Source: Whalleya microplaca
Taxonomy: Eukaryota > Ascomycota > Sordariomycetes > Xylariales > Xylariaceae
Assembly: GCA_022497155.1 (NCBI GenBank)
Contig: MU385781.1
Location: 62,001-126,000, forward strand
Length of the DNA stretch: 64,000 bases
Direction of reading: 5' to 3'
The translations under genes were made by a program, and so were the position numbers. Below the pieces are notes generated by a model. The model was given only the letters and a program-made list of their open reading frames with translations. It was not told the origin of the DNA and did not search any database. Positions 18,897 through 19,067 of the stretch are shown in pieces (the first letter of the stretch is position 1; each line of letters starts with the position of its first letter).

Positions 18897-18914
18897 GGCG
18901 AGATGGCCGAGTTG

Positions 18915-18972
18915 GTAAGTTATCCGAAGCCTCTTCCTTCGTCCAATGACACCATGTATTAATTCAGCACAG
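18915..18972 (+). other. 58-nt intron-like insertion in the tRNA D-loop
   Basis: The insertion begins GTAAGT and ends CACAG, as a spliceosomal intron would. Its length matches the short introns of protein genes in this window, and a weak branch-like AATGAC lies about 23 nt before the end. The first base G is also found just after the insertion, so the boundary could be shifted by one. Removing it gives a standard tRNA-Leu. The sequence shows only the form; splicing is not shown. Confidence 0.7.
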
Positions 18973-18992
18973 GTTATGGCGTCAGGTTAAGG

Positions 18993-19009
18993 TCACCTTA
19001 GCACTTAAT
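18993..19009 (+). other. Canonical tRNA intron
   Basis: Seventeen nt between anticodon-loop positions 37 and 38. The internal CTTAA (19004-19008) can pair with TTAAG (18987-18991), the usual anticodon-intron pairing recognised by the tRNA splicing endonuclease. Confidence 0.8.
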
Positions 19010-19061
19010 TCCTGGTGGAGCAATCCGCGTGGGTTCGAGTCCCACTCTCGTCACATATTTC

Positions 19062-19067
19062 TTTTTT
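19062..19067 (+). terminator. Pol III terminator after tRNA-Leu
   Basis: A run of six T starting 9 bases after the discriminator base of the tRNA, a standard RNA polymerase III stop. Confidence 0.75.

What the first reader, a model, noticed from the sequence alone, without database searches (positions are those of the whole stretch)
18897..19053. tRNA-Leu(AAG) gene interrupted in the D-loop by a spliceosomal-looking intron
The gene folds as a perfect class II tRNA only if 58 nt (18915-18972) are removed from the D-loop. The insertion has GTAAGT and CACAG ends and the length of this genome's mRNA introns, yet it sits in an RNA polymerase III gene that also keeps its normal 17-nt anticodon-loop intron with the expected pairing. 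Nuclear tRNA introns of fungi are normally only at position 37/38. D-arm introns are known in some red algae and archaea, where they have bulge-helix-bulge ends, which I could not build here. Either a spliceosomal intron has landed in a tRNA gene, or the insertion is removed by another route, or the copy is dead.
Basis: partly seen in the sequence, partly recalled or inferred. Interest (0 to 1): 0.88.

Follow-up and report, generated by a model that had tools for sequence, protein, structure and literature searches.

The report
Spliceosomal intron in a tRNA gene
In this fungus two tRNA genes are each interrupted by a short stretch that looks like an ordinary messenger-RNA intron, placed where tRNA introns are not normally found, which suggests that the mRNA splicing machinery may be needed to make some tRNAs.

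Summary
The window carries a tRNA-Leu(AAG) gene with a 58-nt insert (18915-18972) between G18 and G19, plus the usual 17-nt intron at 37/38. The only other Leu(AAG) gene found in the genome (48 Mb; one window protein is 100% identical to a Whalleya microplaca protein) has the same mature sequence and an exact empty site. A model trained on this genome's own protein-gene introns places the insert at their 64th percentile; it ranks first of 35 GT..AG intervals inside the gene, and 5 of 1,000,000 random inserts do as well. A second case turned up: one of four tRNA-Lys(CTT) genes found has a 62-nt GTAAGT...TACTAAC...AAG insert in the T arm (95th percentile). Excising either insert restores a cloverleaf about as good as the intact copies. 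Both insertion points are G|GT inside the A or B box, and the intron's own ends rebuild the box. No strict bulge-helix-bulge fits the junctions. The U6 gene and 5S genes listed have no insert. Best reading: U2-type spliceosomal introns gained in RNA polymerase III tRNA genes and probably removed by the spliceosome. Splicing itself is not shown; no RNA data or related genomes were reachable.

The parts
18897..18914 (+). tRNA-Leu(AAG) exon 1 (acceptor 5' strand, 5' D stem, D loop to G18)
   Evidence: sequence; identical in paralogue C19
18904..18915 (+). A box TGGCCGAGTTGG; its last G is the first base of the insert
   Evidence: A-box consensus recalled
18915..18972 (+). 58-nt GT-AG insert, spliceosomal-type intron
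   Evidence: exact empty site in paralogue; intron score 14.2, 64th percentile of 55 called introns; rank 1 of 35 GT..AG intervals
18957..18963 (+). best branch-point-like heptamer TATTAAT, near the 3' end of the insert; weak (13th percentile)
18973..18992 (+). tRNA exon 2 (rest of D arm, anticodon stem 5' strand, anticodon AAG, position 37)
18993..19009 (+). canonical 17-nt intron at 37/38; differs from the C19 paralogue at 4 positions
19010..19053 (+). tRNA exon 3 (position 38, anticodon stem 3' strand, variable arm, T arm, acceptor 3' strand)
19032..19042 (+). B box GGTTCGAGTCC
   Evidence: B-box consensus recalled
19062..19067 (+). T6 run, RNA polymerase III terminator-like

Best explanation
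The insert is a U2-type spliceosomal intron gained by a tRNA-Leu(AAG) gene. It went in at a G|GT site inside the A box, and its first base restores the box, so RNA polymerase III can still transcribe the gene. The precursor carries two introns. The spliceosome removes the 58-nt D-loop intron in the nucleus, and the tRNA splicing endonuclease removes the 17-nt intron at 37/38, giving a mature tRNA identical to that of the intact paralogue. The same kind of event hit a tRNA-Lys(CTT) gene (C41), there in the T arm, where the intron's last G restores the B box. Shown: insert limits, intron-like signals, restored fold, preserved boxes, two independent cases. Inferred: transcription, removal by the spliceosome, order of steps, function of the product.
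For: Exact empty site in the paralogue, with the mature sequence identical: the 4 differences all lie in the 17-nt canonical intron, and the 1.5-kb flanks do not align beyond about 14 bases from the gene, apart from one stray 21-base match. Intron model from this genome, with no called intron in or near the window tRNA gene: Leu total score at the 64th percentile of 55 called introns (5' site 89th, 3' site 93rd), matched by 0.13% of 100,000 decoy GT..AG intervals; Lys at the 95th percentile with TACTAAC, 0.004% of decoys. The insert is the top GT..AG interval in both genes, 1 of 35 and 1 of 7; random inserts reach the score in 5 and 0 of 1,000,000. Excision restores full cloverleaves, 26.2 and 26.9, against 26.2 and 27.2 for intact copies. 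Length 58 lies within the called range 46-119; 9 of 55 are as short or shorter. A and B boxes intact, no T run over 2 in either insert, T6 downstream of Leu. By my scorer 59 of the 61 tRNAs fold with no intron or one at 37/38 only.
Against: No RNA evidence. The Leu branch-point match is weak (13th percentile). Each gene has intact siblings (1 found for Leu, 3 for Lys), so loss of the interrupted copy would be survivable. Exon identity does not date the insert: a recent insertion into a gene now dying would look the same. The intron model is ab initio, from 55 called introns that include some false calls. No conservation test in relatives was possible. The one U6 gene and 22 5S matches listed for this genome show no such introns (both lists are lower bounds).
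Confidence: 0.65

Rival explanations
1. Dead or dying copy: a spliceosomal intron (by origin) landed in the gene, but the polymerase III transcript is spliced poorly or not at all, so the copy yields little or no tRNA and is tolerated because sibling genes remain.
For: Intact siblings exist for both tRNAs. A short uncapped transcript with a very short first exon is an unusual spliceosome substrate (general knowledge). Leu branch point weak.
Against: All mature positions are identical to the paralogue for Leu and the stems of Lys pair after excision, three acceptor pairs being G-T; both promoter boxes are intact in both genes, and in Leu so is the canonical intron. Two cases, both with good splice signals. 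The U6 intron of fission yeast shows that a polymerase III transcript can be spliced (PMC10484740, passages).
Confidence: 0.25
2. The insert is removed by the tRNA splicing endonuclease or another endonuclease, as for non-canonical tRNA introns of red algae, nucleomorphs and archaea.
For: D- and T-arm tRNA introns exist in Cyanidioschyzon merolae (PMC4090602 and PMC3978253, passages), and many ectopic tRNA introns of the Guillardia theta nucleomorph form no defined bulge-helix-bulge motif (PMC3978253, passage), so absence of the motif is not proof. With ends shifted by up to 8 nt, motif-like pairings of 3 and 4 of 4 (Leu) and 4 and 3 of 4 (Lys) can be drawn, but 2.4% of random site pairs reach 3 and 3, so several are expected among 289 tries.
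Against: At the registers allowed by the junction the central helix has 0-1 of 4 pairs (Leu) and 0-2 of 4 (Lys). That test uses the strict archaeal geometry, which the canonical 17-nt intron also fails, so it excludes a classical motif only. Position is not 37/38. The spliceosomal signals would be coincidence.
Confidence: 0.05
3. Chance insertion without intron nature, or an assembly artefact.
For: No other copy of either insert was found in the genome, so no source was identified.
Against: 5 (Leu) and 0 (Lys) of 1,000,000 random inserts match the score; two cases on separate contigs, both exactly restoring the tRNA.
Confidence: 0.04

Closest known systems
mRNA-type intron of U6 snRNA in fission yeast
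   Same: Spliceosomal intron in a small polymerase III transcript; passages of PMC10484740 call it mRNA-type and thought to arise by reverse splicing
   Different: Different gene class; here tRNA genes with internal A and B boxes, and the U6 gene listed for this genome has no insert
Spliceosomal introns in rDNA of ascomycetes (Bhattacharya et al. 2000; seen only as a reference in PMC3596301)
   Same: Spliceosomal introns in structural RNA genes of ascomycetes (content beyond the title recalled)
   Different: rRNA genes, RNA polymerase I; this genome's rDNA was not examined because the search gave no usable answer
Non-canonical tRNA introns of Cyanidioschyzon merolae, nucleomorphs and archaea
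   Same: Introns in D and T arms of tRNA genes (PMC4090602, PMC3978253, passages)
   Different: Typically bulge-helix-bulge ends for the tRNA endonuclease, not found at these junctions by the strict test; many in Guillardia theta lack a defined motif too, so their route is open
Introners / intron-generating elements (recalled)
   Same: Intron gain with short direct repeats, here GGT
   Different: No other copy of either insert found in this genome

Membership tests
U2-type spliceosomal intron | GT...AG ends at the true insert limits | tested here: met
   Empty-site comparison; one of the four sliding registers
U2-type spliceosomal intron | 5' splice site like this genome's introns | tested here: met
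   GTAAGT; 89th percentile (Leu), 91st (Lys)
U2-type spliceosomal intron | Branch point like this genome's introns | tested here: inconclusive
   TATTAAT, 13th percentile (Leu); the Lys insert has TACTAAC, top of the range
U2-type spliceosomal intron | 3' splice site and length | tested here: met
   CAG, 93rd percentile; 58 nt within 46-119. Lys: AAG, 49th percentile, 62 nt
U2-type spliceosomal intron | Removal by the spliceosome | not testable with these tools
   No RNA data
Functional nuclear tRNA gene | Complete cloverleaf after excision | tested here: met
   26.2 versus 26.2 for the paralogue
Functional nuclear tRNA gene | A box, B box, terminator-like T run | tested here: met
   consensus sequences recalled
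Functional nuclear tRNA gene | Mature tRNA made | not testable with these tools
   No RNA data
Endonuclease-type (BHB) tRNA intron | Position 37/38 | tested here: not met
   Insert lies between G18 and G19
Endonuclease-type (BHB) tRNA intron | Bulge-helix-bulge at the junction | tested here: not met
   Central helix 0-1 of 4 pairs; strict geometry only, and the canonical intron fails it too
Introner element | Many near-identical copies in the genome | tested here: not met
   No second copy listed at E<=10

The most novel reading that the evidence does not exclude
In this fungus spliceosomal introns have repeatedly invaded tRNA genes at G|GT sites that lie inside the A and B boxes, where the intron ends themselves rebuild the promoter. 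Such genes stay active and make tRNA output depend on the spliceosome, with one precursor processed by both the spliceosome and the tRNA endonuclease.
Probability: 0.5. Interest if true: 0.9.

Novelty: new variant of a known kind. Interest (0 to 1): 0.78.

Why it matters
Spliceosomal introns are known in protein genes and, in fungi, in U6 and rRNA genes; my ten searches of the held open-licence library listed no title or abstract reporting one in a tRNA gene (most subscription papers are not held). If confirmed, one precursor would pass through two unrelated splicing machines, translation capacity would be tied to the spliceosome, and intron gain could be studied at sites where the empty state is known to the base. 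It also warns that tRNA finders can miss such genes.

Tried and rejected
Searching for more cases. A box directly followed by GTAAGT: 12 hits genome-wide; the window gene is one, and 281-base windows around the other 11 show no strict T arm. B box preceded by YAG: 146 matches, the first 100 listed, 36 read. ARAGORN reports one tRNA among the 36 (L109); L115 was picked by eye; seven of the 36 were scanned with Rfam, which reports L109 and L115 as tRNA. Neither shows a spliceosomal insert; four more carry a 3' half of tRNA-Leu(TAG); the others were judged by ARAGORN and eye only. Not read: 64 listed matches (some are known tRNAs) and 46 unlisted ones. tRNA-Gly(GCC): 5 genes, full length. 5S rRNA: 22 matches, 21 of 119-121 nt and one cut at a contig end (47 of 2,191 candidates scored). 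U6: one match over 103 nt, no large insert (47 of 2,566 scored). The tRNA survey is incomplete: one search scored 63 of 1,595 candidates. The 69 tRNA or tRNA-like genes seen are 61, the window gene, 5 Gly, L109 and L115.

Intron model. A first version with 35 gaps was small; a relaxed version was swamped by noise and dropped; the third, 119 gaps and 55 confident introns, was used. None of the 55 overlaps the window tRNA gene or the central tRNAs of the other 20 stretches. In the one gene with a public protein (P0001), one intron was recovered automatically and the other by eye from the printed sequence; both are in the set. One search was a failed script for this check; broke midway and was redone.

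T runs inside the inserts are no evidence: 18 of 55 called introns also have no T run above 2. rDNA introns could not be examined. Papers: passages only of PMC4090602, PMC3978253, PMC11782384, PMC3596301, PMC10484740 and PMC4494063; all others from search listings only. Two papers asked for by DOI are not held.

Full report
WHAT IS THERE. The window lies on contig C72 of a 48.1-Mb genome in 114 contigs. A protein of the window is 100% identical over the query to a hypothetical protein of Whalleya microplaca; the next named hits are Biscogniauxia, Monosporascus and Xylaria relatives, that is Xylariales (recalled). At 18897-19053 there is a class II tRNA-Leu(AAG) gene interrupted twice: 58 nt at 18915-18972 in the D loop and 17 nt at 18993-19009 at position 37/38. 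It lies between a HECT ubiquitin-ligase gene and a dehydrogenase E1 gene, both on the other strand. ARAGORN and Rfam do not report it at their defaults.

THE EMPTY SITE. Searching the genome with the gene found one other Leu(AAG) gene, C19:448537-448635. It lacks exactly the 58 nt and reads ...GAGTTG|GTTATG.... The mature sequence is identical; the only 4 differences lie in the 17-nt intron. Of 1.5 kb of flank on each side, nothing aligns beyond about 14 bases from the gene except one stray 21-base match, so the copies are not a fresh segmental duplication. GGT stands at both insert ends, so the register can slide by up to 3 nt; only one register gives GT...AG.

IS IT AN INTRON BY SEQUENCE? 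I trained donor, branch-point, acceptor and length models on gaps between coding-like open reading frames in the window and 20 other 10-kb stretches (264 kb): 119 gaps, 55 confident introns of 46-119 nt, commonest donor GTAAGT (10 of 55), commonest branch heptamer TACTAAC (6 of 55), CAG or TAG ends in 40 of 55. None of the 55 overlaps a tRNA gene looked at. The one gene with a public protein confirms two of them. The Leu insert scores 14.2: 64th percentile overall, donor 89th, acceptor 93rd, branch point only 13th (TATTAAT). Of 100,000 decoy GT..AG intervals, 0.13% reach it. Of the 35 GT..AG intervals of 40-130 nt inside the gene it ranks first. Random 58-mers placed there do as well in 5 of 1,000,000 trials or 3 of 200,000.

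A SECOND CASE. Among the 61 tRNAs listed by the Rfam tRNA model, a tRNA-Lys(CTT) gene at C41:306943-307077 carries 62 nt in the T arm: GTAAGT...TACTAAC...AAG followed by GTTCGACCCC. Three other Lys(CTT) genes found lack it; these copies share up to about 40 bases of 3' flank with it, so here the duplication may be younger. The insert scores 16.8, the 95th percentile of the introns (acceptor 49th); 0.004% of decoys and 0 of 1,000,000 random inserts reach this, and it ranks first of 7 intervals in the gene. The two inserts agree in the first eight bases and, by eye, not clearly beyond. No other copy of either was found in the genome, so a recent high-copy introner is not the source.

WHAT EXCISION DOES. 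I scored cloverleaves for every possible excision of 40-124 nt with a home-made scorer. The best GT-AG excision is the insert itself in both genes: 15.2 to 26.2 (Leu) and 16.8 to 26.9 (Lys), against 26.2 and 27.2 for intact copies; overlapping excisions without GT-AG ends tie. On the same scale 59 of the 61 tRNAs score above 23 with no intron or one at 37/38; the exceptions are Lys C41 and an AT-rich tRNA on C48.

WHY IT IS TOLERATED. Both inserts sit at G|GT: G18|G19-T20 in the D loop and the G|GTTC of the T arm. These lie in the two internal promoter elements (consensus recalled). In Leu the intron's first base restores the last G of the A box; in Lys the intron's last G restores the first G of the B box. 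The A-to-B distance grows from 58 to 116 bp and from 32 to 94 bp, which TFIIIC is known to accommodate (recalled). Neither insert has a T run over 2, but that is common among introns here, 18 of 55, so it is no sign of selection.

OTHER ROUTES. A strict bulge-helix-bulge does not fit: central helix 0-1 of 4 pairs (Leu), 0-2 of 4 (Lys) at the allowed registers. With ends shifted by up to 8 nt motif-like pairings can be drawn in both genes, as expected by chance from so many tries, and those shifted ends are not the insert limits. The strict test also fails on the normal 17-nt intron, so it rules out only the classical archaeal motif. Many ectopic tRNA introns of a cryptomonad nucleomorph also lack a defined motif (PMC3978253, passage). 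The fungal tRNA endonuclease measures to 37/38 (recalled), and neither insert is there.

HOW FAR THE PHENOMENON GOES. Two of the 69 tRNA or tRNA-like genes seen have such inserts. The tRNA list is incomplete, since one search scored 63 of 1,595 candidates. The one U6 match and the 22 5S matches listed have none.

WHAT IS NOT SHOWN. Transcription, splicing and function. Both tRNAs have intact sibling genes, so a dead copy cannot be excluded; sequence identity with the sibling does not date the insert.

AGAINST THE LITERATURE. Ten searches of the held library listed no paper whose title or abstract start reports a spliceosomal intron in a tRNA gene; subscription papers are mostly absent there. 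A review of tRNA introns holds no word beginning with spliceosom, and the passages seen treat non-canonical introns as endonuclease substrates or leave their removal open (PMC4090602). The nearest precedent is the mRNA-type intron of fission yeast U6, a polymerase III transcript, thought to arise by reverse splicing (PMC10484740, passages). Reverse splicing into tRNA, followed by reverse transcription and recombination, is a possible origin here too (inference).

VERDICT. A real, unusual feature: very probably a spliceosomal intron by nature (about 0.85), probably spliced and functional (about 0.65).

Noticed in passing
L070:101-235 (G000:C41:306943-307077): Second interrupted gene: tRNA-Lys(CTT) with a 62-nt GT-AG insert in the T arm, three intact siblings found. 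Part of the finding, outside the window.
   Followed up: yes
L109:81-266 (G000:C1:1563160-1563345, - strand): tRNA-like gene, perhaps Arg(CCT), with about 113 nt extra in the anticodon loop and C instead of T at position 33; no good splice signals.
   Followed up: partly
L115:82-202 (G000:C32:479391-479511, - strand): Degenerate tRNA-like sequence with perfect acceptor stem but poor anticodon and T arms.
   Followed up: partly
L101, L104, L110, L111: Dispersed sequences carrying a 3' half of tRNA-Leu(TAG) (L064), followed by CCA that the gene itself lacks, suggesting copies made from mature tRNA.
   Followed up: partly
L089, L090, L091, L092 and other places: B-box-like TAGGTTCGATTCC recurs many times genome-wide (146 matches to YAGGTTCRANYCC against 37 for the reversed control), apparently a dispersed repeat with a tRNA-like arm.
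   Followed up: no
L074:101-173 (G000:C48:408742-408814): Very AT-rich tRNA-like sequence, possibly mitochondrial in origin or mutated by RIP.
   Followed up: no
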